Assembly: GCF_002240355.1 (NCBI RefSeq)
Contig: NZ_CP016353.1
Coordinates: forward strand, 3,522,501-3,586,500
Origin: Prauserella marina
GTDB lineage: Bacteria; Actinomycetota; Actinomycetes; Mycobacteriales; Pseudonocardiaceae
Direction: 5' to 3'
Length of the DNA: 64,000 nt
Shown here: positions 17,415 to 59,841 of the stretch, piece by piece
Position numbering within the stretch: position 1 is the first letter of the stretch
How the letters are laid out: each line of letters starts with the position of its first letter
Notes under the pieces: generated by a model
Told to the model about the DNA's origin: nothing
The model's input: the letters and a program-made list of their open reading frames with translations, nothing else
Databases searched by the model: none
Made by a program: the position numbers and the translations under genes

Positions 17415-17665
17415 CCCCGCGAGTCCCCCGTCCAGGAGCGCGAGTTCCGCACCCAGGACGGCGAGATCCGCACTTAGAACAACGAGATCCGCGTTCACGA
17501 GCGCGAGTCGCACGGTCGGAACATCGACGCGCCCGGTCGACCCGCCGGGTTGCGCGTTCGGTCCCGAGCCGCGGGCTCGGCTGCCTCGACGGCCACGCGC
17601 TGGGGCCGGGAGGGCAGCGTTCGGGAGCGCACACCGGATGTCCGGCTCACGGCGCACGATTCAGG
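17415..17665. repeat. capped 21-bp tandem repeat array R1 and flanking non-coding sequence
   Basis: The 19-bp cap CGCGAGTCCCCCGTCCAGG occupies 17418-17436, 3 bp after the dehydratase stop. It is followed by degenerate units (GAG[A/T]TCCGC at about 17442, 17463 and 17483) until about 17519. In the frame that follows the stop codon the array reads EFRTQDGEIRT and then meets a TAG, so it is not a protein extension. The rest, to the next gene at 17666, shows nothing recognisable. Confidence 0.75.
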
Positions 17666-17935
17666 TCACCAGCCAAACGCCGAGGCCGCGGCCATGAGGC
17701 CGGAGAAGATTACCTGCGCGCCGCCGATGACGGTGCCGGCCATCGCGGTCCAATCGAGGCGATACTCGCGTCCTGTCGACATCGAGGCAGCCCCGCAACC
17801 CGCCGCGACGGCGCCCACGACGATGCCGAAAGCGGGCGTCAGCCAGCTGATGACCGCCAGGCCGAGCGCGCAAGGCCCGAGCCACGCCTGCTTGCCCGGC
17901 CGGTCCTTCACCGGCAGGGACCGCAGCGCCTTCAC
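17666..17935 (-). CDS. small DUF4190-like membrane protein
   Basis: An 89-residue protein with two hydrophobic segments: LGLAVISWLTPAFGIVVGAV (about 23-42) and a second around WTAMAGTVIGGAQVIFSGLM (about 64-83). The small-residue-rich pair with a short polar link resembles DUF4190-type membrane proteins, whose function is unknown. The start is GTG 17935, with GAGG 5 bp upstream; an in-frame TGA further upstream rules out a much longer form. It stands alone on the minus strand between two repeat arrays, with no partner suggesting a role. Confidence 0.55.
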   Translation of the reverse strand: MKALRSLPVKDRPGKQAWLGPCALGLAVISWLTPAFGIVVGAVAAGCGAASMSTGREYRLDWTAMAGTVIGGAQVIFSGLMAAASAFGW

Positions 17936-18203
17936 CGCGACCTCGGAATACAGCGCACGATGTCATCCTGACGCACTGGAGCGAATCCGGCACCCCCGTA
18001 CTCGCGAGTCCCCCGTCCAGGCCGCCGAGATCCGCGCCCAGGACGGCGACATGCCCATCCGGGTCACCGATGATCGAGGTCGGGAAACCGGGCAACGCGG
18101 GAGGATCCGCCGGATTGGTGGATCAGCGGGCGATTCCGCGCCTCGACCGGCCATTCCGGACAGTTCGAGCACGGCCGCCCGGCGGAGAGTCACAGTCGCG
18201 CCG
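17936..18203. repeat. capped 21-bp repeat array R2 in intergenic region
   Basis: A second exact copy of the 19-bp cap CGCGAGTCCCCCGTCCAGG is at 18003-18021, followed by one good unit (GAGATCCGC at about 18027, then CAGGACGGC) and decayed sequence to about 18065. Unlike the other capped arrays it is not just downstream of a same-strand stop codon. The remaining sequence to the ohr stop at 18204 is featureless. Confidence 0.7.
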
Positions 18204-18641
18204 TCAGGCTGTGGTCAGCCGCACCTCGATGTTGCCCCTGGTGGCATTGGAATAGGGACACACCTGGTGCGCGGCCTCGGCGAGTTCACGCGCCGTCGCG
18301 GAATCCACCGAAGGAAGGGAAATCGTCAGTTCGACGGTCAGTCCGTATCCTCCCCCTCCGTTCGGACCGATTCCGACGGCGGCGGTCACCGTACTTCCGG
18401 TGACATCAGCCCTCGCCCGCCTGGCGACCACGAACAGGGCGCTCTGGAAGCACGCGGCGTATCCCGACGCGAACAACTGCTCGGGGTTCGTACCCCCGCC
18501 CTGCCCACCCATCGCCTCGGGCACCCTGACGTCGACATCGAGCGCACCGTCATCGGTACGCACGTGTCCGTCCCTGCCGCCATCCGCCGTAGCCACGGCC
18601 GTGTACAGGATCTTCGTCGGCGCCTGCTCCGCTGTACCCAT
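18204..18641 (-). CDS. ohr: organic hydroperoxide resistance protein (OsmC/Ohr family)
   Basis: A 145-residue thiol peroxidase that reduces organic hydroperoxides. The start TKILYTAVATADGGRDGHVR and the motif GGTNPEQLFASGYAACFQSA (peroxidatic Cys about residue 62) identify Ohr; the resolving Cys is in HQVCPYSNATRGN (about 127). Length is normal for Ohr. ATG 18641 was chosen because family members start a few residues before TKILYT; the nine upstream codons are unconserved. It diverges from the DedA-type gene across a 171-bp region holding a strong palindrome, a possible OhrR/MarR site, although no ohrR gene is next to it. Confidence 0.92.
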   Translation of the reverse strand: MGTAEQAPTKILYTAVATADGGRDGHVRTDDGALDVDVRVPEAMGGQGGGTNPEQLFASGYAACFQSALFVVARRARADVTGSTVTAAVGIGPNGGGGYGLTVELTISLPSVDSATARELAEAAHQVCPYSNATRGNIEVRLTTA

Positions 18642-18713
18642 CGGTCGTCCCTTCCTCGTGCCGGTCACCCGCCAGCCTCGCGCATCCCGTACTCACCCGC
18701 ACCACAGTGACCC

Positions 18714-18731
18714 GGTGGGGTTTTCCCCACC
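18714..18731. promoter_or_regulatory. palindrome in the ohr-dedA divergent promoter region
   Basis: GGTGGGG-TTTT-CCCCACC is a perfect 18-bp inverted repeat between two divergent genes. Because neither gene ends here it is unlikely to be a terminator; a repressor site or a transcribed hairpin is more likely. Confidence 0.4.
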
Positions 18732-18812
18732 ACGCACCGGGGGCGGGCAGGCTGTCGCGGCACCGCCGCGCCGCACAGACTGAACAGATCGATCGAGGAG
18801 GCGACGGCACCG

Positions 18813-19778
18813 ATGACCCCACCCGAACTGCTGGGCATGGCCGACCAGCTTCCGTGGTGGGTCTACCCGCTGCTGTTCGCGATGACGGCCGCGCCGGCCG
18901 TTCCGAACTCGGCACTGGTCATGACGGCGGCGGCGCTCGCGGCTCAAGGCGGGGTCTCGCTGCCGCTGCTCGCCGTCGTGGTCCTTGCCGGGACCGTCAC
19001 CGGCGACCTCGCCGCCTACGCCGTCGCCAGGCTGTCCAGAAGGAGCCGTCTTGGCGGCACTTCAAGCGGGAACCGCGTCCTGCTGCTCGCCGCCAGTGCG
19101 GAGGCGTTGTTGCACCGGCGTGGCGGAGCGGTGTTCATCGCAATGCGTTTCGTTCCGGGAGGACGCGTCACCGGCGCGATCGCGGCGGGCCGGGGTGCCT
19201 ATCCCGCGACGAGGTTCGCCGGCGCGGCCGTACTGGCGGAATGCGCGTGGACGGCGACCTACCTCGCGGCCGGATTCACCGGCGGAAGCCTGGTCTCCGG
19301 CCCCGGTCCGGCGTTGCTCATGGCCGCGGTCATGAGCGCGCTGGTAAGCGTGGGCGGGTGCGTCGTGCGCGGATACTCACGCACCGACCCAGACGCGGCG
19401 CGCGGTGGAAGCCGTCGCACTGTCGCCGCATCCGCCGTACCGGTCGCTGCTGTACAAGGTCACGGCACCGGCCCTGCTCACGCGGAAACGCGACGACCGC
19501 GTCGGTCCGCGCGTATTCGGCCACTGTGGACAGGGGGTGCCGACCGGGCGGAAGGACGCCTTCGAGCGCGCCGTCATCCCGTTTCTCACCGGCCGAGGAT
19601 CACGCCGAGTCCGCGCGCCGCCTTCGTATCCGCACCACCAGCACCACCACGACGAACAGTCCGCCCACAACGAGCGTGGAACGCGCGCTCACGGAACCGG
19701 CCGAGGCGCGCGCTCTCTCCGCGAGCGCGACGGTCTTGCCGCGCACGAGTCGCAGCCTGTCCTCCGCCGTATCCCTGA
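18813..19778 (+). CDS. DedA/VTT-domain membrane protein with suspect C-terminal end
   Basis: Residues 1 to about 195 are a DedA-family (VTT/SNARE-associated) membrane protein: LPWWVYPLLFAMTAAPAVPNS, GTVTGDLAAYAVARLSR, and the FIAMRFVPGGRVTGAIAAG re-entrant motif, the family's F..R..P..R hallmark. GAGGAG lies upstream of the ATG. The last ~125 residues are Arg/Pro/Ala-rich, have poorer third-position GC, and overlap the converging DUF3618 gene by 179 bp. From about 19385 the good codon bias moves to another forward frame, so a frameshift (real or sequencing) near 19370-19400 is likely and the true 3' end is unknown. DedA proteins act in membrane lipid flipping and homeostasis. Confidence 0.65.
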   Translation: MTPPELLGMADQLPWWVYPLLFAMTAAPAVPNSALVMTAAALAAQGGVSLPLLAVVVLAGTVTGDLAAYAVARLSRRSRLGGTSSGNRVLLLAASAEALLHRRGGAVFIAMRFVPGGRVTGAIAAGRGAYPATRFAGAAVLAECAWTATYLAAGFTGGSLVSGPGPALLMAAVMSALVSVGGCVVRGYSRTDPDAARGGSRRTVAASAVPVAAVQGHGTGPAHAETRRPRRSARIRPLWTGGADRAEGRLRARRHPVSHRPRITPSPRAAFVSAPPAPPRRTVRPQRAWNARSRNRPRRALSPRARRSCRARVAACPPPYP

Positions 19779-19929
19779 CCCGGTCGGCCACGTTCGCCTT
19801 CCGCAGCACCGCCGCCGCCGTCTCGGCGAGTTCGGCCCTCGTCAACTCGGCATCCAGCCGCAGGTCGTCGTCGGTCGGCTCGCCGCCGGGCAACGCGTAC
19901 CGCTGCCTGCGCCGTTCGTCGCCGGTCAT
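19600..19929 (-). CDS. DUF3618-domain membrane protein
   Basis: A 109-residue protein with the DUF3618 pattern: LRLDAELTRAELAETAAAVLRKANVADRVRDTAEDRL (about residues 23-59), then a single hydrophobic helix TLVVGGLFVVVVLVVRI near the C terminus and a short Arg-rich tail. The family is of unknown function and typically sits beside a Holin-X protein in actinomycetes, as here. It overlaps the upstream Holin-X gene by 4 bp (ATGA), so both are likely made together and may form a small membrane unit. Confidence 0.85.
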   Translation of the reverse strand: MTGDERRRQRYALPGGEPTDDDLRLDAELTRAELAETAAAVLRKANVADRVRDTAEDRLRLVRGKTVALAERARASAGSVSARSTLVVGGLFVVVVLVVRIRRRRADSA

Positions 19930-20645: not shown

Positions 20646-20666
20646 GCCGAAGGAGGCGAGGGATCC

Positions 20667-26109: not shown

Positions 26110-26970
26110 TCGGAAACGTCTCCTCAACGGTCGCACGGGTCGGCATTGCCGGTGGCAGTGCCGACTCACCATTCACATGTCCAGCCCAGATGGTGATGCC
26201 ATCGAGACTACTGTGGGCTCGCAACACCCACCATCACCTCGCCGCCGGTCCTGTCCGCGTACCGGTGCGGTACTTCCCCATTCAAGACGGCGTGGCAACC
26301 CGCGACCCTACGCTTTGGCGGCGGCCCAGGCCACGTCCCTTGCCCGCGACTTGTCGGCCGAGCGTGGTGCCCCGCTCGGCACCCGCGTGCAGGCCGCCGA
26401 GTTCTGCGTCCGCGACGGCGATATCCGCGCTCAGGACGGCGATATCCGCGTTCGGGGCGGTGAAATGCGCATCCAGGACGGCGAGAAGCGCATTCGGTGT
26501 CCGGGCCACCGCCACCGGGCGCTGACGACGCGGGCAACGTCGAACCAGTCCGCTGACAGGTCCTCCCGTGGGTACAGGATCTGTACGGTCGCGTGCACGA
26601 GAACCGCATTCAGGACCGCGAGAAGCGCATTCGCCGCCACGAGCCGTGGCGCGGGAAGCGGTGCCCTGGAGCCAGTGATGACCGCCCGCCGAGGGCGCGG
26701 TGCTCGGCCGGCCGACCCGGCGGCACCTCAGCCCGGCTTCTTACCCACGGTGACGGAACTCGGAGGCGCGAGCGGCCGAGGCTCGCCCCGGTTCGACGTT
26801 TCCGTTCGCGGTCCCCGCGCCCTCACCGCGGATCTCGCCGTCCTGAGTGCGGATCTCGCCGTCCTGGGTGCGGATCTCGCCGTCCTGGGTGCGGATCTCG
26901 ACGGTCTGAGTGCGGATCTCGCCGTCCTCGGCGGGGGACTCGCGCGGCGGTGGCCCGGGACCAGCGCGGG
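26110..26970. other. 861-bp intergenic region with two 21-bp repeat arrays
   Basis: No convincing gene is present. The right-hand end holds the best repeat array (26828-26944). About 26395-26490 and 26590-26640 hold a degenerate array in the opposite orientation (GATATCCGC twice, GAAATGCGC, GAGAAGCGC twice). The clpX promoter must lie in the first ~150 bp, but I cannot define it. Long forward open frames here are produced by the stop-free repeats. Confidence 0.6.
26828..26944 (-). repeat. 21-bp tandem repeat array R3 with cap, downstream of metX
   Basis: GCGGATCTC recurs at 26828, 26849, 26870, 26891 and 26912, exactly 21 bp apart, linked by GCCGTCCTG[G/A]GT-type spacers. The array ends at 26926-26944 with a cap that matches the 19-bp consensus at 17 of 19 positions. 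Read on the minus strand the cap comes first, 26 bp after the metX stop, so the array lies in the sense direction of metX. Confidence 0.85.
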
Positions 26971-28110
26971 TCAGGCAGCCAGCAAATCGGTCAGCAGTTT
27001 GGCGACCTGCTCGGTCTCCACCAGGAAGCCGTCGTGACCCGACGCCGAGGAGATCACCCGCATCTCGGCACCTCGGATCCCCTCCGCCAGCGCGCGTTGC
27101 TGCGCGAGCGGGTACAGCCGGTCGGTGTCGACGCCACCGACGAGTGTCGTCGCGGTGACCCGGCGCAACGCCTCGGCCACCCCTGCTCTGCCCGCCCCGG
27201 CGTCGAACAGGTTCATCGCCTCGGCGAGCCGCACGTAGCTGCCCGCGTCGAACCGGCGGACCAGCTTCGCCGCATGATGATCCACATAGGACTCCACGGC
27301 GAACCTCCCGCCCGAGGCGGGGTCCTCACCGGGTTGCGGCCTCCTGTCGAACCGAGCGGCCAGTTCCGGTTCGCTGCGGTAGGTCAGGTGCGCGATGCGG
27401 CGGGCGATGCCGAGTCCCCCGTGCGGCCCGTCCCCCGGTCGCGCGGAATAGTAGTCGCCGCCCCGCCAGCCGGGGTCGGAGGTGATCGCCGCGATCTGGG
27501 TCGCGGTCCAGGCGATCTGGTCGGCGCTGGACCGCGCGCTCGCCGCGAGCACCGCGAGGCGGCGCACCCGCTCCGGCTCCCTGACCGCCCATTCGAGCGC
27601 TCGCATTCCGCCCATCGAGCCGCCGACGACCAGCGCCCACTCACCAACGCCGAGGTGGTCGGCCAGTCCGGTCTCCGCCGCCACCTGGTCGCCGATGGTC
27701 AGCCCGGGAAACCTACTCCCCCATGGCAAGCCGTCGGGACCGGCCGACGAGGGACCGGTGCTGCCCTGGCAACCGCCGAGCACGTTGGGCGCGACGATGA
27801 ACCACCGCGCGGGATCGAGCGCCTTGCCGCTTCCCACGAGGCCGTCCCACCAGCCGGGGCTGGGGTGCCCCGCGCCCGCCGGTCCCGCGACATGACTGTC
27901 GCCGGTGAGCGCGTGCAGCACGAGCACGGCGTTCGAGCCGTCGGGCGCCAGCGTGCCCCACGTCTCGTAGGCGATCTGGTAGCCCGGCAGCACGCCGCCG
28001 CGTTCGAGACCGAGCGGCATGGCAGGGCGGAACCAGTTCCGCCCGCCCACCGGATCCCCTTCCCGCCAGGCTCCGCTGACCGGAAGGGGATCGCCGTGGG
28101 AGTCGGTCAC
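26971..28110 (-). CDS. metX: homoserine O-acetyltransferase
   Basis: A 379-residue alpha/beta-hydrolase-fold enzyme that activates homoserine (with acetyl-CoA) for methionine synthesis. Family motifs are LVLHALTGDSHVAG, FIVAPNVLGGCQGSTGP, the nucleophile elbow VVGGSMGGM (Ser about residue 165) and the C-terminal SSASGHDGFLVE with the catalytic His (about 363). The GTG start overlaps the metY stop by 4 bp (GTGA), giving a coupled metY-metX operon. Acetyl versus succinyl specificity cannot be proven here, but acetyl is normal for actinobacteria with MetY. Confidence 0.95.
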   Translation of the reverse strand: MTDSHGDPLPVSGAWREGDPVGGRNWFRPAMPLGLERGGVLPGYQIAYETWGTLAPDGSNAVLVLHALTGDSHVAGPAGAGHPSPGWWDGLVGSGKALDPARWFIVAPNVLGGCQGSTGPSSAGPDGLPWGSRFPGLTIGDQVAAETGLADHLGVGEWALVVGGSMGGMRALEWAVREPERVRRLAVLAASARSSADQIAWTATQIAAITSDPGWRGGDYYSARPGDGPHGGLGIARRIAHLTYRSEPELAARFDRRPQPGEDPASGGRFAVESYVDHHAAKLVRRFDAGSYVRLAEAMNLFDAGAGRAGVAEALRRVTATTLVGGVDTDRLYPLAQQRALAEGIRGAEMRVISSASGHDGFLVETEQVAKLLTDLLAA

Positions 28111-32555: not shown

Positions 32556-32846
32556 GTGGCAACCCACAGTCCACACGCGCATCACGGCCAGCACCGACGG
32601 AACCGTCAGCACGGCCAGCACCGACGACACAGCCAGGTCGGCGTCGGCGACCGGGTCACCTTCGTAGCGGGGCGGCGTACGGGGTGGAGCCGCGTGTGCA
32701 GACGAGGTTCGGTGACCGCTCAGCCGGTCTTCGACAAGGACACCACCACCTGGTGGGTTCCGGTGCAGCCCGACGACACGAGAACGGCGCCCGAACCGCA
32801 CTGGGTTCCCCGCGAACAGATCGTCGACGTCGCCTCACCGTCCTGA
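32556..32846 (+). CDS. small conserved-looking hypothetical protein, His/Arg-rich N terminus
   Basis: A 96-residue protein that I do not recognise. Residues 1-28 are rich in His, Arg and Gln; the rest (VGVGDRVTFVAGRRTGWSRV ... TTWWVPVQPDD ... HWVPREQIVDV) looks like a small beta-barrel of SH3/KOW style. A strong GGGGAGGAG precedes the GTG, and the third-position GC is high, both favouring a real gene. It lies between the metI terminator and the lemA gene with no clear partner. Confidence 0.55.
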   Translation: MATHSPHAHHGQHRRNRQHGQHRRHSQVGVGDRVTFVAGRRTGWSRVCRRGSVTAQPVFDKDTTTWWVPVQPDDTRTAPEPHWVPREQIVDVASPS

Positions 32847-43535: not shown

Positions 43536-43583
43536 GGACGGTCCGAGTGCGGATCTCGACGGCCTGAGCGGGGGGCTCCCGGA
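43536..43583 (-). repeat. short degenerate 21-bp repeat array R4 with cap
   Basis: GCGGATCTC (about 43550) and a cap-like GGGGGGCTCCCGG segment lie just downstream of the terminator of the cupredoxin-Ig gene. The orientation is the same as in R3: on the minus strand the cap comes first, in the sense direction of the gene that has just ended. Confidence 0.55.
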
Positions 43584-43584
43584 C

Positions 43585-43620
43585 GGGTGGGCCCTGGCAC
43601 CTCAGCGCCAGGGCCCACCC
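43585..43620 (-). terminator. terminator hairpin after the cupredoxin-Ig gene
   Basis: GGGTGGGCCCTGGC and GCCAGGGCCCACCC form a perfect 14-bp stem with an 8-nt loop, 3 bp downstream of the stop codon on the minus strand. Confidence 0.85.
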
Positions 43621-43623
43621 GCC

Positions 43624-45834
43624 TCACGCCGCCGAGGGGACCGGCACTCCCCTCGCGGCACTGACGATCGCCTTGCGCTCCTGCGCCGTGATCACGCCCT
43701 GGGCTTCCAGGTCACGGGCGACCTGCCTGACGTGACTGACGAACGCCGCCTGATCGGGATAGCCGGCTTCCTCGACGATCAGGTCGTTGATGGTGCACCC
43801 GTTACCGGTGTCCACATTGGCCACTCCGGTATCCGTGTCACCGACGACCACCGTCTCCCTGGCGTCCGACACCGTGCAGTGCACACCGTCGGCGACGATG
43901 CGGAACCGCGCCGTGCCCACCTCGGAGGTGTTGCCCGCATTGTCCGTCGCCCGGTAGTGCACGGTGTACTCACCGGGATCCAGCACGGTCAACGGGATCC
44001 GGTACGGCCGGAAGCTGCCCTCACCGAAGCTGTACTCGATGAGCGCGACCCCGGATTCGTCGTCCTCGGCCAGCAGGGTGATCTTGGCGAGATCGATGTA
44101 ACTCCATTCCCAGTCCTGCTCGCCGGTGATGCGGATACTCGTCTCCGGCGCCGTCGTGTCCTCCTGGGACCCTTCGACGACGGTGAAGGTCACCGACCCC
44201 GCCTCCGAGACGTTGCCAGCGTTGTCCGTCGCCCGGTACGCTACCGTGTGCTCACCGGGCTCGGTGACCTCGACGGGATCGGTGTAGCCGGTGAACTCAC
44301 TTTCCCCGAGCGCGTACTCGACACTCGCCACCCCTGATTCGGCGTCCTCGGCCGAGATCACCACGGTCGCCGCGCCGAGATAGGCACCGTCGCCGTCCTG
44401 CTCGCCCGTGACCTCCGCGGTCACGGTGGGCGCCGTGTCGTCGGGTTGTCCTTCGACGACGGCGAACGAGACCGAGCCCGGCTCCGAGGTGTTGCCCGCG
44501 AGGTCGGTGGCCCGGTATTCGACGGTGTGTGAGCCGATCGCCGACACCACGACCGGTTCGGTGTACGGGGTGTACATACCGCCGTCGAGGGAGTACTCCA
44601 CGGTGTCCACACCGGACTCGGCATCGTGAGCGGTGAGGTTCACCGCCGCCGAGCCGACGTAGTTGCCGTCACCGTCCTGCTGACCGGTGACCTCGGCCAT
44701 CACGTGTGGCGGCGTCGTGTCGTCCTGGGAGCCCTCGATCACCGTGAAGGTCGCCGAGCCCGCCTCCGAGACGTTGCCAGCGTTGTCCGTCGCCCGGTAC
44801 GCCACCGTGTGCTCACCGAGTTCGGTGACCCTGACCGGTTCGCTGTAGTCGGCGAATCCCGCACCGTCGAGGTCGTACTCGATACCGGCGACGCCGGAAC
44901 CCGCGTCCTGGGCGTTCAGGATCACCGTCGCCGCACCGAGATAGTTGCCGTCGGCATCCTGATTACCCGCGAGTTCCGCTGTCACCTCCGGCGGTGTGTT
45001 GTCCTCCGGTTCGCCTTCGGCGACGGTGAACGACACCGACCCCGGGTCCGAGGTGTTGCCCGCGTTGTCTGTCGCCCGGTACTGCACCGTGTAGTCACCG
45101 GGTTCGGCAAGGGTCACCGGTTCCGAGTACGGCTGAAAATCCCCTTCCCCTACCGCGTATTCGATACCGGCCACGCCGGATTCGGCGTCCTCTGCCGACA
45201 CTGACACGGTCGCGGAACCGAGATAGTTGCCTTCGGCATCCTGATCACCGGTCACCTCGGCGGTAACCGTGGGAGCCGTGGTGTCCTGTTCACCGCCCTC
45301 GGTGACGGTGAGCACGCCCTGCATCTGCTGATGTCCCGGTATCGCGCAGAAGAACCGGTACTTGCCAGGTGACAGGTTGACCTGCACCTCGTGCCTGCCG
45401 CCGTTGGCGTCGAAGGGACTGGCCACGATGTCCACGTCGACGTCGTGGTTGTAACCAGGGGTCGACGTGTCGAAGGTCAGCGTGTGCGTCATGCCGGACG
45501 TGTTGCCGGTCGCCACGCTGTTCTCGAACACCAGCGTCGCGGCGCCCGCGGTCGCCGTCGTCGGCGCCTCACCGTATTCGTTGAGACTGTTGTTTCCCGT
45601 CCACGTGAGCACTTGCGCTTGCGCGGGCTGCACCTGCGCCCGTTGTACCTGCTGGGTCTGGGGAACCGAGGGCCGCCCCGCGTCCTTCGCGTCGTCGGCG
45701 AAGGCCGACGGCACCAGCCACACCAACGCCACCAGCAGGCTGAGCAGCGCGGCACTCCCCCGCCGGATCGCCACCCACGAGCCGGATTTCCTCCCGCGAT
45801 GCCCGTGCCGAGCACCGCGTAATCGTCGAAACAT
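43624..45834 (-). CDS. secreted cupredoxin with five Ig-like repeats and a shared C-terminal module
   Basis: A 736-residue exported protein. After an Arg-rich start, the signal helix (about 27-46, ending PSAFA) leads to a plastocyanin-like domain (about 73-180) with a complete type-1 copper site: His117, Cys163, His168, Met171 (FFCAIPGHQQM). Five tandem ~91-residue Ig-like repeats follow (about 181-640), each with FxxYxxPV and VxYRATDNAGN. The last ~85 residues (HCTVSDARETVV ... GCTINDLIVEE ... SHVRQVARDLEAQGVI) recur in the neighbouring 1332-residue protein. It is the last gene of a three-gene secreted cluster and could be the electron carrier between a sugar dehydrogenase and a laccase. Confidence 0.85.
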   Translation of the reverse strand: MFRRLRGARHGHRGRKSGSWVAIRRGSAALLSLLVALVWLVPSAFADDAKDAGRPSVPQTQQVQRAQVQPAQAQVLTWTGNNSLNEYGEAPTTATAGAATLVFENSVATGNTSGMTHTLTFDTSTPGYNHDVDVDIVASPFDANGGRHEVQVNLSPGKYRFFCAIPGHQQMQGVLTVTEGGEQDTTAPTVTAEVTGDQDAEGNYLGSATVSVSAEDAESGVAGIEYAVGEGDFQPYSEPVTLAEPGDYTVQYRATDNAGNTSDPGSVSFTVAEGEPEDNTPPEVTAELAGNQDADGNYLGAATVILNAQDAGSGVAGIEYDLDGAGFADYSEPVRVTELGEHTVAYRATDNAGNVSEAGSATFTVIEGSQDDTTPPHVMAEVTGQQDGDGNYVGSAAVNLTAHDAESGVDTVEYSLDGGMYTPYTEPVVVSAIGSHTVEYRATDLAGNTSEPGSVSFAVVEGQPDDTAPTVTAEVTGEQDGDGAYLGAATVVISAEDAESGVASVEYALGESEFTGYTDPVEVTEPGEHTVAYRATDNAGNVSEAGSVTFTVVEGSQEDTTAPETSIRITGEQDWEWSYIDLAKITLLAEDDESGVALIEYSFGEGSFRPYRIPLTVLDPGEYTVHYRATDNAGNTSEVGTARFRIVADGVHCTVSDARETVVVGDTDTGVANVDTGNGCTINDLIVEEAGYPDQAAFVSHVRQVARDLEAQGVITAQERKAIVSAARGVPVPSAA

Positions 45835-53509: not shown

Positions 53510-53710
53510 CACCGAGGTCCAGCGTCCGGGACGCCGAGATCCGCACCCAGGGCGCCGAGATCCGCGTTCGGGACGGTGAGATCCGCGCTGGTGCGCGCCA
53601 GATGCGCACTCCGGATGGCGAGATCTGCGTACAGAACGCCGAGATCCGCACCCAGGGCGGCGAGGCCCGCGTCCGGGACGGTGAGACCTGCGTCCGGGCG
53701 GGGAGATACC
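53510..53710 (+). repeat. 21-bp tandem repeat array R5
   Basis: GAGATCCGC occurs at about 53536, 53557 and 53578 (21-bp spacing) and again near 53641, with diverged units (GATGCGCAC, GAGATCTGC, GAGGCCCGC, GAGACCTGC) between and after. No good cap is present at its left end. Confidence 0.75.
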
Positions 53711-53760
53711 CGTCGGCGCCGGGAATGTCCGGGTGGGCGACGCGAGGTGTCCACCCGGAT

Positions 53761-53858
53761 GCCGGGCGCCGGGTGCCGGGTGCCGGGTGCCGGGTGCCGG
53801 GCGCCGGATGCTGGATGCTGGATGCCGGACGCCGGACGCCGGACGCCGGACGCTCGAC
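53761..53858. repeat. 7-bp satellite, about 14 units
   Basis: Fourteen consecutive heptamers follow the pattern GC[C/T]GG[G/A][T/C]: GCCGGGT-type units, then GCCGGAT/GCTGGAT, then GCCGGAC. The change of type from left to right suggests successive local expansions. It continues into GCTCGAC-like copies to about 53880. Confidence 0.85.
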
Positions 53859-53990
53859 GGACGCTCGACGGAAGGCGCCGTTGGCATCGGGCGAACCCGG
53901 CGCACGAACGCGCCACCCGAACTCAAGTACGCGGGACTCGCGCTGTCGAAGGCAGCTCCCCTGGGCCCGGACGGAGAACCCGGTGGGCAC

Positions 53991-54290
53991 CGATGCGGAT
54001 CTCGGCAGCTGGAGCGCGGAACTCGCGGGCGCCAATGCAGAACTCGACGGTCTGGACGCGGGACTCGCGCACTTAAGCAGAACTCACGGTCCTGAACGCG
54101 GAACTCGGCGTCCGGAACGAGGGATTCGCAGCCGAGCGCTGGGGCTGGGCCCAGCGCGGATCTCGAACCCAGCACGGAACTCGGACCCCATGCGGATCTC
54201 GGCGTCGGGAACGCGGATCTCGTGAGCACGAGCGCGGATCTCGGTGTCCTGAGTGCGGGACTCGCGCGCCGGAACGGGGACTCGCCGCCC
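53991..54290 (-). repeat. long degenerate 21-bp repeat array R6 with cap
   Basis: Repeated GCGGA[T/A]CTCG units alternate with GCGGGACTCGCG and GCAGAACTC variants. The array closes at about 54271-54287 with GGAACGGGGACTCGCCG, a cap relative. On the minus strand the cap comes first, about 33 bp after the stop of the SMI1/KNR4 gene, repeating the arrangement of R3 and R7. Confidence 0.7.
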
Positions 54291-54320: not shown

Positions 54321-54977
54321 TCAGTCCAGGAGCGCTTCCGCCGGGGCATCGTCGGGCAGGTCACGCAGCCGGACCGCCATCGCCGCCCGCGAGCGCATAC
54401 CGGTCACCGCGTCGCCTGAGTACAAATTGGACACCTCGAAGGCGCCACCGGCACAGAACGGCACCTTCGGCATGAGCCGGTTTCCCTCGGCGAGCGGCTC
54501 GTTGTCCCGCAACCACTCCCGCACGAGACCGTGCCCCGTCATGTAATCGTTGTCGAGCAACACCAGCCGCGCCCAGTCGTTGATGCTCGACGCGAGTACC
54601 TCGGTCTCGGCCGTCTCGGGATCGAACAACACGACCTCGTCGCCGCGCGCGGCGAACTGGCTTCCCACGAAGTCCTCCGCGAAGAACAACATGCCATCGG
54701 CCTGCGAGTCGTAATCGCGGATCCAGAGCCCGGGGTCGTTCCACCCGGCCACATCCACGACATCGGAATCACCAGCGACACCGCCCACCGCCAGCGAGGG
54801 GAATACGTGCAGCGCGGCGTCGAACGCGTACATCCCGTTGCCGCGCGAAAGCAGGTAGGCGAGTTCGCCGAGAAGGCGCTCCGACACGTCCGGGGAAACG
54901 ACCGGTTCCGCCGGTTCGCCGAGCACGGGAACCCCGACGGCACGGAGACTGTCGATAGCCGCGACATTCGTGAGCAC
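54321..54977 (-). CDS. SMI1/KNR4 (SUKH)-like protein
   Basis: A 218-residue soluble protein. The pattern LSRGNGMYAFDAALHVFPS, then GLWIRDYDSQADGMLFFAEDFVGSQFAARGDEVVLFDPETAETEVLASSINDWARLVL, matches the SMI1/KNR4 (SUKH) superfamily, many members of which are immunity proteins to polymorphic toxins. No toxin gene is adjacent, so an immunity role is not supported here. GTG 54977 begins MLTNVAAIDSL. The function is unknown. Confidence 0.75.
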   Translation of the reverse strand: MLTNVAAIDSLRAVGVPVLGEPAEPVVSPDVSERLLGELAYLLSRGNGMYAFDAALHVFPSLAVGGVAGDSDVVDVAGWNDPGLWIRDYDSQADGMLFFAEDFVGSQFAARGDEVVLFDPETAETEVLASSINDWARLVLLDNDYMTGHGLVREWLRDNEPLAEGNRLMPKVPFCAGGAFEVSNLYSGDAVTGMRSRAAMAVRLRDLPDDAPAEALLD

Positions 54978-55316: not shown

Positions 55317-55859
55317 TCAGCGAACCGGGCGGTCCGGCGTGATCCGCAGCGTGGCGATGACGGTGGCCAGCATCTCGTAGTGCCCAGCCAGGAGGCACAA
55401 TTCGATGACCTCGCGTTCGCCGAGCCACGCGCGCAGCGCGGCCCAGCTCTGGTCGTCGAGGTCGCGCTCGTGGTGCAGCAGGTCGACGGCCGCGATCATC
55501 GCGCGTTCCCTTGGCGACCAGCCCGGCTCCGCCGGGCCGCGCCGGACACGCTCGACGTCACCTTCGGTCAACCCGATCCTGCGGCCGAGCCGGTCGTGAT
55601 GGGCGAACTCGTAGTCACAGCCCCGCAGGTGCGCGACGCGCAGGATGACGAGTTCGGTCTCCCGGCGCGGCAGTGAACCGCCCGGCATGAGCCGTCCCGC
55701 GAAGTGCAGCCAGCCCACGAACACTCGCCGGTTCTTGCCGAGTACCCGGAACAGCTTCGGTGGTTCCGTGCCGGAGAACCGGCCGATCACGGCGGCGACG
55801 GACGAGGCGAAAACACCGATGTCGCGCCGTCCGCCCGGCTCGATGCGCCCGTTACTCAC
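55317..55859 (-). CDS. carboxymuconolactone decarboxylase/AhpD-like family protein
   Basis: A 180-residue all-helical protein. ETELVILRVAHLRGCDYEFAHHDRLGRRIGLTEGDVERV is the CMD-family core, with one cysteine and the EFAHH pair instead of the AhpD CxxC, as in the peroxidase-unrelated subgroup. A later segment SPRERAMIAAVDLLHHERDLDDQSWAALRAWL completes the fold. The GTG overlaps the upstream SDR stop by 4 bp. Together with the SDR it may process a small oxidised substrate; the reaction is unknown. Confidence 0.85.
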   Translation of the reverse strand: MSNGRIEPGGRRDIGVFASSVAAVIGRFSGTEPPKLFRVLGKNRRVFVGWLHFAGRLMPGGSLPRRETELVILRVAHLRGCDYEFAHHDRLGRRIGLTEGDVERVRRGPAEPGWSPRERAMIAAVDLLHHERDLDDQSWAALRAWLGEREVIELCLLAGHYEMLATVIATLRITPDRPVR

Positions 55860-56713
55860 GACTCCGCCTCGGGCTGCGGGGTGGTGAAGGCGATCTCTTC
55901 GTCGCGAGCCAGCGACAACGCTGCCGGCAGCTTCTTTCTCGTCGCGACGTCGATGACACGCTGGGCGATCCCCCGCACGGGCAATACCGCGCCGGCCCAC
56001 GGCGGGGCGACGATACGCCGTTTGCGCGCGACGATCCCGCGTTCGAGCGCGTCGATGCCGACATTCAGCGGAGCGGGCGTGTTCAGTGATCCTCCCCCGG
56101 TGAGCGCGGTCGCGGCATTGGTGCCGAACCCCCTGCTCGTCATGTCGGTGTCGAGTTCGGCGAAGTAGGCGACGCCGACGCGCGCTCCCGTGGCGTGCAA
56201 CTCGATGCGCGCGGTGTTGCCGAGCGCCTCGACCGCGGCCTTCGACGCGCTGTAGGCACCGAGCAGCGGCAACTGGACCGCGGCGGCGAGCGAGGCCACG
56301 AGCACCACGTAACCGCCGGGGTGGGCGACGAACGGTCCCGCCGCGTTGAGCGTGTGATAGCTGCCGAGGACGTTCACGCGCAGAGTCTGTTCGAGCACCG
56401 CCGGATCACCGCCGACAAGCGGAAGTTGCTTCGCGATTCCGGCGTTGGCCACGACGATGTCGAGTCCGCCGAGTTCCGAAGCCAGCTCGCCGACAGCGCT
56501 GGTGACCTGATCGGCGCTTCGCACGTCGCAGGACCGCCACGGCGCATCGCATCGTCCGGCCACAGTGGACAGTTGAGCCGGTTCGATTCCGGCGAGCGCG
56601 ACCTTGGCTCCCCGTGCGTGCAACCGGATGGCGAGCGCGGCACCGATTCCCCTGGCCGCTCCCGTGATCAGCACCCGCTTACCCGCGAGCGACCCTCGGC
56701 GTTGAGGCGACAT
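55856..56713 (-). CDS. short-chain dehydrogenase/reductase (SDR)
   Basis: A 285-residue classical SDR. The cofactor motif is LITGAARGIGAALA (about residues 15-28), NAGIA is the structural NAG motif, and the catalytic Ser-Tyr-Lys is seen in VASLAAAVQLPLLGAYSASKAAVEAL (Tyr about 154, Lys about 158). The long C-terminal part with GIDALERGIVARKRRIVAPPWAGAV is typical of a subgroup acting on hydrophobic alcohols or ketones. It is translationally coupled with the AhpD-like gene downstream. Confidence 0.92.
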   Translation of the reverse strand: MSPQRRGSLAGKRVLITGAARGIGAALAIRLHARGAKVALAGIEPAQLSTVAGRCDAPWRSCDVRSADQVTSAVGELASELGGLDIVVANAGIAKQLPLVGGDPAVLEQTLRVNVLGSYHTLNAAGPFVAHPGGYVVLVASLAAAVQLPLLGAYSASKAAVEALGNTARIELHATGARVGVAYFAELDTDMTSRGFGTNAATALTGGGSLNTPAPLNVGIDALERGIVARKRRIVAPPWAGAVLPVRGIAQRVIDVATRKKLPAALSLARDEEIAFTTPQPEAES

Positions 56714-56839: not shown

Positions 56840-57658
56840 GTGTCCAACGACCCAGCGCCGCTTGACCTTGAGCGTCCCAGCGCAGGCCGCGTCTACGACT
56901 ACCTGCTGGGCGGCACCAACAATTACGCGATCGACCGCGAATTCGCCGAGCAGCAGATCGCGCTCACCCCATGGGTGCGCACCTTCGCGATCGCCAACAG
57001 GGCGTTTCTCGGCCGCGCCGTGCGCTATGCCATCGAGAACGGCGTTCGCCAGTTCGTCGACCTCGGCAGCGGTCTTCCCACTCAGGGCAACGTGCACGAG
57101 GTCGCCGACCGGATCGCGCCGGGCGAGGCGAAGGTCGTCTACGTCGACAACGAACCGATCGCCCACGCGCATTCGCGGATCCTGCTTGAGGACACCGCCG
57201 ATCCGGAGCGGCACTTCGCCTTCTGCGGGGATTTCTTCGGCGGCAAGACGTTGTGGACCGAGATCCTTGAGCAGACCGGTCTCGACCGGGACAAGCCCAT
57301 CTGCCTGCTCACGGTGGCACTGCTGCACTTCATGCCGCCGGAAAGCAATCCAGAGGCGACCCTGGCCTACTTCCGGGAGCAGCTTCCCTCCGGCAGCCTG
57401 CTCGTGCTCTCGCACGCGAGCATCGACGAGGAGGATGCCCGTTCCAAGGCCGCGGCCGGCGACATCACGGACAACTACGCCAAGAAAGCGACCCACCAGG
57501 CTCATTTGCGCACCCGTGACCAGATCAGCACATTCTTCGGTGAGTTGGACATGGTCGACCCGGGCCTGGTGTGGCTGTCGCAGTGGCGGCCCGACGAGGC
57601 CGTCAAGGGCAACCCGGCCGCCTCAGGGGCTCTCGGCGGCGTCGCGCGCAAGGCGTGA
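56840..57658 (+). CDS. PF04672 (DUF574)-family SAM-dependent methyltransferase
   Basis: A 272-residue actinobacterial methyltransferase. The family opening ERPSAGRVYDYLLGGTNNYAIDREFAEQ (about residues 11-38) and the SAM motif QFVDLGSGLPTQGNVHEVA (about 71-89) are clear; VVYVDNEPIAHAHSRILL supplies the acidic motif. These proteins are abundant in actinomycetes and some modify natural products or DNA-linked targets, but substrates are mostly unknown. GTG 56840 was chosen because family members begin just before ERPSAGR. A strong terminator follows. Confidence 0.9.
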   Translation: MSNDPAPLDLERPSAGRVYDYLLGGTNNYAIDREFAEQQIALTPWVRTFAIANRAFLGRAVRYAIENGVRQFVDLGSGLPTQGNVHEVADRIAPGEAKVVYVDNEPIAHAHSRILLEDTADPERHFAFCGDFFGGKTLWTEILEQTGLDRDKPICLLTVALLHFMPPESNPEATLAYFREQLPSGSLLVLSHASIDEEDARSKAAAGDITDNYAKKATHQAHLRTRDQISTFFGELDMVDPGLVWLSQWRPDEAVKGNPAASGALGGVARKA

Positions 57659-57663
57659 GCATT

Positions 57664-57700
57664 GCCCGGGGTTCCTTCCCTCGTGGGAGGAACCCCGGGC
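57664..57700. terminator. bidirectional terminator hairpin
   Basis: GCCCGGGGTTCCT and AGGAACCCCGGGC form a perfect 13-bp stem with an 11-nt loop, between the converging methyltransferase (stop 57658) and FMN reductase (stop 57705) genes. Confidence 0.85.
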
Positions 57701-57704
57701 AGTG

Positions 57705-58265
57705 TCAGGCCGCGACGGCTGCCTTGTCCCGCAAGCTGGTGACGACCTCGGTGAGCTGAGCGCGCACCTCGGCGTCGTCGGCCGGGTGCGTCTCGGCGAA
57801 ACGCGTGGCAGAGACGGGGATCGACAGCTTGACACCATCCAGCACGGCGGCACCGGCGATACCGGCGGCCTTGCGTGCCTCATCCTGTGCCCACTCGCCG
57901 CCGAACCGGCCGAGCGCGATACCGACGACGGCGACCGGCTTGTCCCGCATCGCTCCTTCACCGAAGGGACGCGACAGCCAGTCGATCGCGTTCTTGAGCA
58001 CCGCGGGCATCGTGCCGTTGTACTCGGGCGAGAAGAGCAGGAAACCGTCGGCTTCCTTGGCCGACTCGCGCAGCCGGATCACCTCCGCCGGAAGCGGCAG
58101 CCCCTCGGCGTCGATGTCCTCGTTGTAGAAGGGCAGTTCACCGAGCCCCTGGTGGACACGCAGGTCGACATCGGCGGGCGCGAGGCCGACCGCGACGTCG
58201 GCGAGGCGGCGATTGTGCGAACCCGAGCGGAGGCTACCGACAAGGGCGAGGATGCGTACGGACAA
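57705..58265 (-). CDS. NADPH-dependent FMN reductase family protein
   Basis: A 186-residue flavodoxin-fold oxidoreductase. The FMN phosphate loop is GSLRSGSHNRRLA (about residues 9-21), and FLLFSPEYNGTMPAVLKNAIDWLS is the flavin-ring segment that defines the family (chromate/quinone/azo reductases). The TTG at 58265 was chosen because GGGAG lies 5 bp upstream and it gives the expected SVRILALVGS start. It diverges from a TetR gene, with two CGGAC/GTCCG palindromes between, so it is probably induced by a toxic quinone or similar electrophile. Confidence 0.88.
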   Translation of the reverse strand: MSVRILALVGSLRSGSHNRRLADVAVGLAPADVDLRVHQGLGELPFYNEDIDAEGLPLPAEVIRLRESAKEADGFLLFSPEYNGTMPAVLKNAIDWLSRPFGEGAMRDKPVAVVGIALGRFGGEWAQDEARKAAGIAGAAVLDGVKLSIPVSATRFAETHPADDAEVRAQLTEVVTSLRDKAAVAA

Positions 58266-58300
58266 CGTGGCTCCCAGTGCGGAGAGGGGACAAAACCGAA

Positions 58301-58348
58301 GCGGACCAGAGTCCGCATCGTACGGTAACACAAGCGGACCGGAGTCCG
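58301..58348. promoter_or_regulatory. two TetR-type operators between FMN reductase and TetR genes
   Basis: GCGGAC-CAGA-GTCCGC (58301-58316) and CGGAC-CGGA-GTCCG (58335-58348) are inverted repeats with the same arms and 4-bp centres, 33 bp apart centre to centre (about three helical turns). They lie between divergent genes and would let the adjacent TetR repress both. Confidence 0.75.
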
Positions 58349-58380
58349 ATTGTGTCATCATGAGTTAGGCTGGATCGACC

Positions 58381-59028
58381 ATGAGCCCACCCCAGACTTC
58401 GGATTCGGTCTCCGGGACCAATCAAGACCGGATCCCGTTGCGATTGGCAGGCGAGGGACCACCGGCACGAGCCGACGCGGTCCGCAACAGGGCCCGGCTG
58501 CTGGAGGCGGCGGCCACGCTGGTCACCGAGCACGGCGCGGCGCACCTGACCATGGATGCCGTCGCCACCGCCGCCGGCGTCGGCAAGGGCACGCTCTTCC
58601 GCCGGTTCGGCGACCGGGTAGGGCTGCTGCTCGCGCTGCTCGACCACACCGAACGCGCCTACCAGGAGTCGTTTCTCCACGGCCCTCCCCCGCTCGGGCC
58701 CGGCGCGCCGGCGACGGAACGGCTGCTGGCCTTCGGCGAGACGACGCTCGACTACCTCGTCCTGAACAGGGAACTCAATCTCGCGGCCGAACACGACCAC
58801 ACGCGACGTTTCCTGACGCCACCGCGCAAGGTCAGGGCGACCCACGTGGCCATGCTGCTGCACGAGATCGGTGTCAAAGGCGACATCGAGCTGCTTACCG
58901 AGGCACTGCTGGGTTTCCTCGACGTCGCGCTCGTCAGTCACCTCACCACCCAGCGGGACATGCCCCTTGAGCGGCTCACCTCCGGCTGGAGGGACCTTGT
59001 CGCGAGAGTGATCCGGCCCGCGGGGTGA
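58381..59028 (+). CDS. TetR-family transcriptional regulator
   Basis: A 215-residue TetR repressor with a ~35-residue unstructured leader. The HTH is RARLLEAAATLVTEHGAAHLTMDAVATAAGVGKGTLFRRFGDRVGLLLALL (about residues 37-87). The ligand domain is unspecific. ATG 58381 follows no clear ribosome-binding site; a later start is possible. It very likely controls the divergent FMN reductase and itself through the palindromes at 58301-58348. Confidence 0.88.
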   Translation: MSPPQTSDSVSGTNQDRIPLRLAGEGPPARADAVRNRARLLEAAATLVTEHGAAHLTMDAVATAAGVGKGTLFRRFGDRVGLLLALLDHTERAYQESFLHGPPPLGPGAPATERLLAFGETTLDYLVLNRELNLAAEHDHTRRFLTPPRKVRATHVAMLLHEIGVKGDIELLTEALLGFLDVALVSHLTTQRDMPLERLTSGWRDLVARVIRPAG

Positions 59029-59035
59029 GCGGACC

Positions 59036-59611
59036 TCAGGCTGCCACGGGCACGAGACGCGGGCCGAGCAACTGCTGGAACTGGGCGGCGAGCCGGTGAC
59101 CGTCCTCGGCCTTGCCGACGAAACGCTTCCGTGAGCCATCAGCGAACCGCACCACGACGGTCACGCGTTTGGACTCCACAGTGGACCATGCCTGCACGAT
59201 GTGCGTGGCGGCAACGAAGCCCGGTCGCTGTTCGAGCGGCCTCTTCCGGAACTTGCGCTGCCTCCTCCGGCTCGGTATGAACAACGCGACGATCTCGACA
59301 ATGGTCTCGACCACTTCCGCTGCCATCCGCACCAGCATGCCGAACAGGAAGTAGGCCAGGAACAACAGCGGCGCCGCCGTGACGGCGAGAATCTTGGCGT
59401 CGGAGGGATCGTCCCGTAACAGGATGGTTCCCGGCAACGAGGACACCAACGCCAGCCCCAGCGAGATGAACAGCACCTTCAGGCTGAAGCACGTTTCGAG
59501 CCAGTGCTCCACTTTGCTCGCGATGTCCTCGCGCTGGACAAGGTAACCGTGGGGCGCGAAAAGCACATCCATGCGCCTGCCAGGTGCGGCGCCCACCTTC
59601 GCGATCGTCAC
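59036..59611 (-). CDS. membrane protein of unknown function
   Basis: A 191-residue protein that I do not recognise. Two helices, VLFISLGLALVSSLPGTILL (about 46-65) and LAVTAAPLLFLAYFLFGMLV (about 75-94), are followed by a basic stretch (RRRQRKFRKRPLEQ) and a soluble end (KRVTVVVRFADGSRKRFVGKAEDGHRLAAQFQQLL) that resembles a PH-like or small beta domain. GTG 59611 is the likely start. It lies alone between the TetR gene and the repeat array R7. Confidence 0.65.
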   Translation of the reverse strand: MTIAKVGAAPGRRMDVLFAPHGYLVQREDIASKVEHWLETCFSLKVLFISLGLALVSSLPGTILLRDDPSDAKILAVTAAPLLFLAYFLFGMLVRMAAEVVETIVEIVALFIPSRRRQRKFRKRPLEQRPGFVAATHIVQAWSTVESKRVTVVVRFADGSRKRFVGKAEDGHRLAAQFQQLLGPRLVPVAA

Positions 59612-59719
59612 GCTGTCCTCTCATCGTCCGTGATCCGGTGGGGAACCCTAGACCAGACGGCGCAGGCACAGCGGCTGTTTTCCGCACTTGCCCAGTGGCG
59701 AACGACACCGGGCACGCAG

Positions 59720-59841
59720 GGGAACCGGGCATCCAGGACGAGCCGGGCAGCGGGCCGCGCCCGAGCGCGGATCTCGATGGCGCGAGTGCGGATCTCGATG
59801 TCCTGAACGCGGATCTCGGCGTCCTGGACGGGGGACTCGCG
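59720..59841 (-). repeat. capped 21-bp repeat array R7, downstream of the ABC ATPase gene
   Basis: GCGGATCTC units recur at about 59775-59820 at 21-bp spacing, closed by the exact reverse complement of the 19-bp cap at 59823-59841. On the minus strand the cap starts 19 bp after the ATPase stop (59861), so the array follows that gene in the sense direction. Confidence 0.8.

What the first reader, a model, noticed from the sequence alone, without database searches (positions are those of the whole stretch)
17418..59841. Dispersed, polar 21-bp tandem repeat family with a 19-bp cap that follows stop codons
At least seven intergenic arrays share a unit with core GAGATCCGC plus CAGGACGGC at 21-bp period (cleanest at 26828-26944, five exact-period units). 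The cap CGCGAGTCCCCCGTCCAGG occurs exactly at 17418-17436, 18003-18021 and (reverse) 59823-59841, with relatives at 26926-26944, about 43570 and about 54271. In five of six capped arrays the cap begins 3 to about 60 bp after a stop codon and the array runs in the sense direction of that gene. That polarity is unusual: it suggests a 3'-UTR element, a termination or mRNA-stability device, or a mobile family that inserts at gene ends. I know of no named family matching it.
Basis: seen in the sequence. Interest (0 to 1): 0.85.

Follow-up and report, generated by a model that had tools for sequence, protein, structure and literature searches.

The report
Paired repeat arrays after stop codons
Many gene ends in this actinobacterium carry polar arrays of a 21-base repeat that are often the two facing arms of one hairpin-like element near stop codons, and the repeat sequence differs between related lineages even at shared gene ends.

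Summary
Arrays and cap are real. The window holds 10 arrays (42 units); 1.66 Mb of the same genome (Prauserella) holds 101 (517 units), against 0 in reversed sequence. The "cap" is the first-unit variant of the array. The missed feature is pairing: 28 of 29 opposite-strand neighbours in one gap run + then -, caps outside; the exception separates two such pairs by 1.8 kb. Pairs can fold as large hairpins (mean z -6.4, 14 of 28 folded). In Kutzneria the relative is a 61-109-bp palindrome, 1-12 bp from a stop codon in 37 of 41 cases; in sampled P. endophytica loci 16 of 16 outer edges lie within 14 bp of a stop. In this genome the link is looser. Array bodies are lineage-specific: orthologous arrays are no more alike than unrelated ones. 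Best reading: a REP-like family of stop-adjacent inverted-repeat elements, perhaps bidirectional 3'-end/terminator hairpins, with arms expanded into polar arrays. Against function: no covariation, no arm co-adaptation in Prauserella, 39 lone arrays, some empty orthologous gaps. No Rfam hit in the window; no RAYT in 6 genomes.

The parts
17418..17525 (+). capped array, 5 units, 3 bp after the stop of gene 15696-17414; lone arm in a convergent gap
   Evidence: no array found at the orthologous gene end in G001-G003
18003..18068 (+). capped array, 3 units, behind the 5' end of a - gene (17666-17935); lone arm
26399..26482 (+). left arm (4 units; a further weak stretch at 26596-26643) of a head-to-head pair
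26816..26944 (-). right arm (6 units, 2-mismatch cap at 26926-26944), 26 bp from the stop of the - gene 26971-28050
43537..43578 (-). short lone arm (2 units), 45 bp from the stop of the - gene 43624-45774; a hairpin-like inverted repeat (about 43584-43621) lies between stop and array
   Evidence: the inverted repeat was read by eye
53536..53703 (+). left arm (8 units) of a head-to-head element
53983..54263 (-). right arm in three blocks (4+2+4 units), 57 bp from the stop of the - gene 54321-54977
59755..59841 (-). capped array (4 units), 19 bp from the stop of the - gene 59861-61483; lone arm

Best explanation
The arrays are arms of one family of dispersed inverted-repeat elements. The complete element is [outer cap - polar array of 21-bp units] - spacer - [the same kind of array inverted - outer cap]. 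The simplest form, in Kutzneria, is a single 61-109-bp palindrome set a few bases after a stop codon, most often filling the gap between two convergent stop codons. In Prauserella each arm has grown into a tandem array. I infer that a transcript running through a complete element folds into a very stable hairpin just downstream of the stop codon and that this serves as a bidirectional 3'-end element (an intrinsic terminator without U-tract and/or a 3' mRNA stabiliser). Shown by the calls: anatomy, placement, orientation rule, predicted hairpins, patchy distribution within one family, lineage-specific array bodies. Inferred: that Kutzneria shows the ancestral form, termination or 3'-end protection, spread by copying, arm growth by slippage or unequal crossing-over.
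For: Orientation: 28 of 29 opposite-strand neighbours in one gap are + then -; the exception separates two complete pairs by 1.8 kb. G000 pairs fold below shuffles (mean z -6.4; 14 of 28 pairs folded, those with span up to 430 bp), while arms of pairs alone (+0.2, 56) and unpaired arrays alone (-0.1, 45) do not; P. endophytica mean z -9.3 (8 of 8 pairs), P. cavernicola -8.0 (10 of 11), Qaidamihabitans -9.0 (2 of 2). Convergent gaps with arrays 36 of 264, divergent 10 of 261 (OR 4.0, p 8e-5), codirectional 21 of 953. Stop proximity of outer cap edges: P. endophytica 16 of 16 at most 14 bp (one overlaps), P. cavernicola 14 of 17 at most 29 bp, Qaidamihabitans 4 of 4 at most 9, P. shujinwangii 4 of 5 at most 12; Kutzneria 37 of 41 within 1-12 bp, and 7 of 7 codirectional elements lie 4-6 bp from the stop. 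In relatives' codirectional gaps the stop side is nearer in 14 of 15 (rows). In G000 21 of 93 element-to-stop but 0 of 41 element-to-start distances are at most 15 bp. The P. cavernicola gap orthologous to 1927922 holds a short inverted repeat (by eye) instead of the array pair. Ordered unit types (cap-type TCCC in 66% of first, 2% of middle, 0% of last units; 89 arrays, 0 of 2000 order permutations as extreme) fit nested cap-cap and inner-inner pairing (inference).
Against: No consistent U-tract: only 3 of 26 Kutzneria elements have a run of 4 or more T within 14 nt after the hairpin. Arms of one locus are no more complementary than swapped arms in G000 (p 0.57 and 0.53), P. endophytica (0.72) or P. 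cavernicola (0.24), nor in their innermost parts (0.73, 0.34, 0.32). Covariation in 20 Kutzneria palindromes does not exceed shuffles and one pair is unpaired in 18 of 20; only the arm-swap test on 26 elements is positive there (p 0.028; inner stems p 0.0014). Convergent gaps with array pairs (mean fold z -2.1, 14) or lone arrays (-1.4, 22), folded over at most their first 300 bp, are not more structured than convergent gaps without arrays (-3.2; 96 of 228, those of 20 bp or more). 39 of 67 gaps in G000 hold a lone array; of 45 unpaired arrays 32 could be tested for a hidden partner and 3 had z below -2, two of those in gaps that already hold a pair. Some orthologous gaps are empty: 1, 5 and 9 bp long. 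In G000 stop-side preference in codirectional gaps is weak (13 of 21, p 0.06). At 43584-43621 another hairpin-like repeat lies between stop and array.
Confidence: 0.47

Rival explanations
1. Selfish or neutral REP/MITE-like palindromic repeat that spreads by copying and is merely tolerated at gene 3' ends and between convergent genes; arms grow by slippage; no host function.
For: Kutzneria copies share near-identical sequence and a fixed unpaired position (A opposite C in 18 of 20), as expected of copies of one ancestor. Presence/absence at orthologous gaps. Lineage-specific sequence. Lone arms. No arm co-adaptation in Prauserella. Array gaps no more structured than other convergent gaps.
Against: Position within 4-6 bases of the stop even in codirectional gaps of 102-758 bp in Kutzneria (7 of 7) is tighter than promoter avoidance alone predicts. 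No RAYT (PF01797) in 6 genomes. No target duplication noticed by eye at four filled/empty pairs.
Confidence: 0.32
2. DNA-level binding array: 21 bp is two helical turns, so a protein (gyrase, nucleoid protein or a dedicated factor) binds repeated sites on one face and absorbs positive supercoils or blocks polymerase between convergent genes; lineage-specific bodies then track a changing protein.
For: Near-constant 21-bp period. Preference for convergent gaps. Body sequence that differs between lineages under a conserved cap. Lone arrays need no partner. PMC3733652 (passage) says E. coli REPs are targeted by DNA gyrase.
Against: No candidate factor was looked for or found. Kutzneria has no tandem array in the 26 elements seen, only one palindrome per locus. 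Inward head-to-head order is not required by simple binding.
Confidence: 0.13
3. One reading: a sense-polar 3'-UTR element acting one array at a time.
For: 5 of 6 capped arrays in the window; cap behind a 3' end in 68 of 101 arrays of the sample.
Against: Codirectional gaps 16 against 15; inward pairs in divergent gaps; unpaired arrays have no RNA structure of their own (mean z -0.1).
Confidence: 0.05

Closest known systems
REP / BIME (repetitive extragenic palindromes and mosaic elements)
   Same: Dispersed, intergenic, high copy, opposite-orientation dimers able to form large hairpins, mostly between codirectional and convergent ORFs downstream of genes, some families species-specific (PMC3733652: abstract, section 14 and passages seen).
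   Different: Unit is a 21-bp repeat without self-structure, in polar arrays with ordered unit types; no conserved GTAG or CGTC end tag; no RAYT gene found in 6 genomes; in relatives it sits a few bases from the stop codon.
I-shaped (U-less) intrinsic terminators of actinobacteria
   Same: Hairpin without poly-U within 50 bp of the stop codon (described for mycobacteria in PMC12288462, passages seen); Kutzneria and P. endophytica elements fit this placement.
   Different: One sequence family shared across loci and genera; arms are tandem arrays in Prauserella; termination not shown. [quoted passage not shown]
MITEs / palindromic mobile elements
   Same: Inverted caps at the ends, presence/absence differences between species.
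   Different: No target duplication noticed, no parent transposon identified, placement next to stops, arm arrays of variable length.
Bacterial minisatellites / VNTR arrays
   Same: Tandem 21-bp units whose number differs between loci sharing a gene end.
   Different: Dispersed over the genome, polar with a conserved first unit, mirrored in pairs.

Membership tests
REP / BIME | each unit is itself a 20-40-bp palindrome | tested here: not met
   unpaired arrays and arms have no fold excess (mean z -0.1 and +0.2); the Kutzneria relative is a palindrome, but 61-109 bp
REP / BIME | GTAG or CGTC tag at one end | tested here: not met
   the outer end reads GCGAGTCCC in most first units; the CGTC inside the G000 cap becomes CGCTC in the relatives listed, which were fetched by a pattern with CGCTC
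REP / BIME | RAYT (Y1_Tnp, PF01797) transposase in the genome (GTAG type) | tested here: not met
   0 of 6 genomes; 5 of 14 control genomes positive
REP / BIME | opposite-orientation dimers between genes, mainly convergent or codirectional | tested here: met
U-less intrinsic terminator | stable hairpin within about 50 bp of the stop codon | tested here: met
   sampled relatives and Kutzneria; in G000 looser: median element-to-stop distance 52 bp and many lone arms
U-less intrinsic terminator | base pairing under selection (covariation) | tested here: inconclusive
   pair counts do not exceed shuffles; arm swap positive only in Kutzneria
U-less intrinsic terminator | stops transcription | not testable with these tools
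   no RNA data available
MITE | terminal inverted repeats | tested here: met
   caps outside in the 28 head-to-head pairs; not in the 39 gaps with a lone array
MITE | target-site duplication | tested here: inconclusive
   none noticed by eye at four filled/empty pairs; flanks have diverged, so short duplications could be missed
MITE | related autonomous transposon | not tested
   only PF01797 was searched

The most novel reading that the evidence does not exclude
A new kind of gene-end element: mirrored, polar arrays of a 21-bp module with ordered unit types, kept next to stop codons and rewritten in concert at many loci of a lineage because a diverging trans-acting factor (or genome-wide ectopic gene conversion) reads the module. 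That would be a bacterial parallel to satellites that evolve in concert with their binding protein, and a 3'-end code not based on a U-tract hairpin.
Probability: 0.1. Interest if true: 0.8.

Novelty: new variant of a known kind. Interest (0 to 1): 0.5.

Why it matters
How GC-rich actinobacteria with few U-tracts end transcription between tightly packed convergent genes is still debated, and here is a natural series (one palindrome in Kutzneria, short arms in P. shujinwangii and Qaidamihabitans, long arrays in Prauserella, empty or ordinary-hairpin gaps at orthologous sites) that lets this be tested directly. The loss of orthology signal in array bodies despite shared gene ends is an unusual pattern among dispersed bacterial loci.

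Tried and rejected
Considered and set aside: (1) sense-polar 3'-UTR element per array: codirectional count 16 against 15. (2) RAYT-driven REP: no PF01797 in 6 genomes. (3) Rfam family: 0 hits in the window at gathering scores. (4) Body unit as a family-wide marker: of 390 family genomes only G000 is rich in it (78+77); every other genome has 0-4 in all. (5) Homogenisation by chromosomal neighbourhood: unit similarity falls only slightly with distance (Spearman -0.07, p 4e-5). (6) Covariation as proof of RNA structure: negative. (7) Arm co-adaptation in tandem arms: negative. (8) Strand bias along the chromosome: array strands are balanced in each segment (33/33, 4/6, 13/12); the origin was not located, so replication polarity proper was not tested.

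Paper searches listed no description of this family in the held open-access library; most subscription papers are not held, and only listings were seen except for PMC3733652 (abstract, section 14, passages), PMC12288462 (passages) and PMC4210621 (passages; nothing on such repeats in them).

Caveats: gene calls come from my own codon-usage caller trained on this genome and used for relatives and Kutzneria too. In one search ORFs covered 15% or more by arrays were barred, so 'intergenic' is partly built in; without that rule 4 of 55 arrays of the first 864 kb overlapped a called ORF by more than 30 bp, three short low-scoring ORFs in all. Relatives' loci were found through a cap pattern, so they are not an unbiased sample, and one search gave no row for 6 of 38 loci (L127, L138, L154, L168, L170, L177), where no gene was called on both sides. 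Distances are of cap-side edges only. The Kutzneria sample is 26 unique complete elements from the first 30 listed cap hits (4 exact, 26 with one mismatch) of 188. The 13-of-13 figure came from hand-copied rows that left out two codirectional rows (L133 against, the second L123 gap for); the full count is 14 of 15. The binomial 28/28 and the 28-pair count used a 1.5-kb limit; without it the count is 28 of 29. One of the nine orthologue comparisons had no matched controls.
Full report
Observation. The cap at up to 2 mismatches occurs 66+67 times in the whole genome against 1+1 for the reversed pattern. With a profile of the unit, built from this genome, I scanned 1.664 Mb of it (C1:1380001-2580000, the window, C1:5280001-5680000). 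101 arrays of at least 2 units (517 units) were found against 0 in the reversed sequence; they occupy 67 intergenic gaps. ORFs covered 15% or more by arrays were barred from the gene calls; without that rule 4 of 55 arrays in the first 864 kb overlapped one of three short low-scoring ORFs.

Unit and cap. The body consensus in this genome is GAG[A/T]TCCGC[A/G][C/T][C/T]CAGG.CG.C. The cap is not a separate element: it is the first unit of the array, GAGTCCC[C/G]CG[C/T][C/T]CAGG. Unit types are ordered along the array: TCCC at positions 4-7 in 66% of first units, 2% of middle and 0% of last; G at position 14 in 24%, 36% and 71% (89 arrays with at least 3 units; 0 of 2000 order permutations as extreme). 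So the array has a preferred beginning and end, unlike an ordinary minisatellite.

Orientation. When opposite-strand arrays are neighbours in one gap the order is + then -, caps outside, in 28 of 29 cases; the exception is the 1.8-kb space between two complete pairs in one divergent gap. Of the 28 gaps with several arrays, 27 begin with a + array followed by a - array and one reads --. This holds in convergent, divergent and codirectional gaps, so the polarity belongs to an inverted pair and not to the sense of the upstream gene. In codirectional gaps the cap end lies behind a 3' end 16 times and a 5' end 15 times. 39 gaps hold a lone array; its cap is the side nearer to a gene in 30 of 39.

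Gene context. Arrays are in 36 of 264 convergent, 10 of 261 divergent, 11 of 548 ++ and 10 of 405 -- gaps (convergent against divergent OR 4.0, p 8e-5). In this genome the element-to-stop distance has a median of 52 bp, with 21 of 93 at most 15 bp (overlaps counted); element-to-start has a median of 120 bp, with 0 of 41 at most 15 bp; in codirectional gaps the stop side is nearer in 13 of 21, p 0.06.

Relatives. The cap is common in 3 of 4 genomes of the genus and patchy in the family: 78 of 390 genomes hold at least one exact match to a slightly wider cap pattern, most only one or two, which may be chance. With another cap pattern, 7 of 397 genomes drawn from the order have a match, one of them (a single hit) among the 318 outside the family. 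Contig lengths and record titles identify G001 as P. cavernicola and G002 as P. endophytica, so the window's genus is Prauserella. In P. cavernicola, P. endophytica, P. shujinwangii and Qaidamihabitans the cap is followed by 21-bp arrays. Neighbouring arrays on opposite strands are + then - in 8 of 8 cases in P. endophytica, 11 of 13 in P. cavernicola and 2 of 2 in Qaidamihabitans. The commonest body unit differs: GAGATCCGC in this genome, GAGTCCCCC and then GAGTTCCCC/GAGTTGCCC in P. cavernicola and P. endophytica, GAGTGC[C/T]GC in P. shujinwangii (20 body units only).

Kutzneria. Kutzneria sp. CA-103260 (G228, recognised by elements and positions matching record NZ_CP073318.1) has 93+95 cap matches against 0+1 in the control. 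From the first 30 listed hits come 26 unique complete elements: 61-109-bp palindromes with predicted energies of -42 to -73 kcal/mol. 17 lie in convergent gaps, 7 in codirectional, 2 in divergent. 37 of 41 stop-side distances are 1-12 bp, the other four being -25, 122, 787 and 956; all 7 codirectional elements lie 4-6 bp from the stop although the start side is 23-680 bp away. Only 3 of 26 have a run of 4 or more T within 14 nt after the hairpin. P. endophytica shows the same lock: 16 of 16 outer cap edges at most 14 bp from a stop (one overlapping), start-side edges 16-383 bp. In the relatives' codirectional gaps the stop side is nearer in 14 of 15 (rows).

Hairpin. 14 of the 28 G000 pairs were folded (span up to 430 bp): mean z -6.4, range -1.4 to -13.9; unpaired arrays -0.1, arms alone +0.2. 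P. endophytica pairs give -9.3 (8 of 8), P. cavernicola -8.0 (10 of 11), Qaidamihabitans -9.0 (2 of 2). But arms of one locus pair no better than swapped arms in G000, P. endophytica or P. cavernicola. Kutzneria gives p 0.028 for whole arms and 0.0014 for inner stems, yet a direct pair count on 20 aligned elements shows no excess of compensatory changes and one position unpaired in 18 of 20. The shared mismatch points to common descent of the copies. Convergent gaps without arrays in G000 (96 of 228, those of 20 bp or more) have fold z below -2 in 60% of cases (mean -3.2), more than gaps with pairs (mean -2.1, 14 gaps) or lone arrays (-1.4, 22 gaps), each folded over at most its first 300 bp. 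So ordinary hairpins are common in such gaps and the array pair may be one of several gap fillers; array gaps are not the most structured ones. At one orthologous gap P. cavernicola has a short inverted repeat (by eye) where this genome has a +5/-7 pair.

Evolution. Arrays at shared gene ends: 1434965 (P. endophytica, both flanks; P. cavernicola, one flank), 1782488 (both species, left gene shared, right neighbour different), C5326958 (P. cavernicola, one flank), 3035657 (P. cavernicola and Qaidamihabitans, both flanks), 2004990 (P. cavernicola, both flanks) and 4523976 (Qaidamihabitans has a +3/-3 pair, this genome only a - arm). Different occupancy: this genome has 9 bp between convergent stops where P. 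endophytica has +5/-4 (both flanks) and P. cavernicola +4/-6 (right flank shared); 1 bp where P. endophytica has +13/-4; a +5/-7 pair against 58 bp and a lone -4 array against 5 bp in P. cavernicola; and the array at 17418 is not found in G001-G003. Among gene pairs adjacent in both genomes, 126 gaps were compared with P. cavernicola (1 shared array, 2 only here) and 32 with P. endophytica (1 only there). Independent gain at a shared gene end is not excluded.

Body sequence. In eight comparisons with matched controls, arrays at a shared gene end were about as similar as arrays at unrelated loci of the two species (for example 15.47 against 15.45, 14.39 against 14.49; departures from -0.96 to +0.38), while arrays at other loci of the same species scored 16.46-17.27 of 21. 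The lineage difference is clear for this genome (mean unit identity 14.0 within against 11.8-12.8 to the others) but not between P. cavernicola and P. endophytica (14.05 between, 14.04 and 14.78 within) and not resolved for P. shujinwangii (12.87 within, 12.86 to P. endophytica). So the body is rewritten together at many loci at the level of lineages, not demonstrably of every species.

Mechanism. I favour a 3'-end hairpin element working in both directions, because placement relative to the stop codon in the sampled relatives is too tight for simple promoter avoidance. Confidence is moderate: no RNA data, negative covariation, array gaps not more structured than other convergent gaps, many lone arms in this genome and some empty orthologous gaps. 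A copy-spread, REP-like origin is compatible with a 3'-end role. The DNA-binding rival rests on the two-turn period, the convergent-gap preference and the lineage-specific body.

Comparison. The closest known kinds are REP/BIME (dimers in opposite orientation, convergent and codirectional gaps; PMC3733652, abstract, section 14 and passages seen) and U-less terminators within 50 bp of stops (PMC12288462, passages seen). Membership in REP fails on unit palindrome, tag and RAYT. It is best filed as a new variant of dispersed palindromic gene-end elements, with tandemly expanded, ordered arms.

Noticed in passing
G001, G002, G003, G329 genomes; L116 and L118 near the 17414-locus orthologue: A different palindromic repeat, AGTGAAGGNNNCCTTCACT (up to 1 mismatch), has 0 copies in this genome but 16, 324, 319 and 98 in G001, G002, G003 and G329. 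In 120 kb of P. endophytica 11 copies are all intergenic, 6 of them in convergent gaps. Copies sit after the gene whose orthologue here is followed by the 17418 array, as if palindrome families replace each other at gene ends.
   Followed up: partly
53755-53872: A 7-bp repeat (consensus CCGGATG, then CGGACGCTCGA-like units) lies in the spacer between the two arms at 53536-54263.
   Followed up: no
43584-43621: A GC-rich inverted repeat (by eye) sits between the stop of the - gene at 43624 and the short array at 43537, so here the array lies beyond a terminator-like hairpin.
   Followed up: no
56007-56070: A 21-bp-period repeat inside the - gene 55856-56674, with a unit that does not look like the family.
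   Followed up: no
32583-32636: A two-copy 27-bp tandem repeat that does not look like the family.
   Followed up: no
L119, L132, L144, L162, L164 (Herbihabitans) and L122 (Amycolatopsis thermalba): Similar cap-like repeats with apparently 22-bp spacing in Herbihabitans, and a long GAGCCCCACGCTCAGGCCCGC array in A. thermalba: further lineage variants.
   Followed up: no
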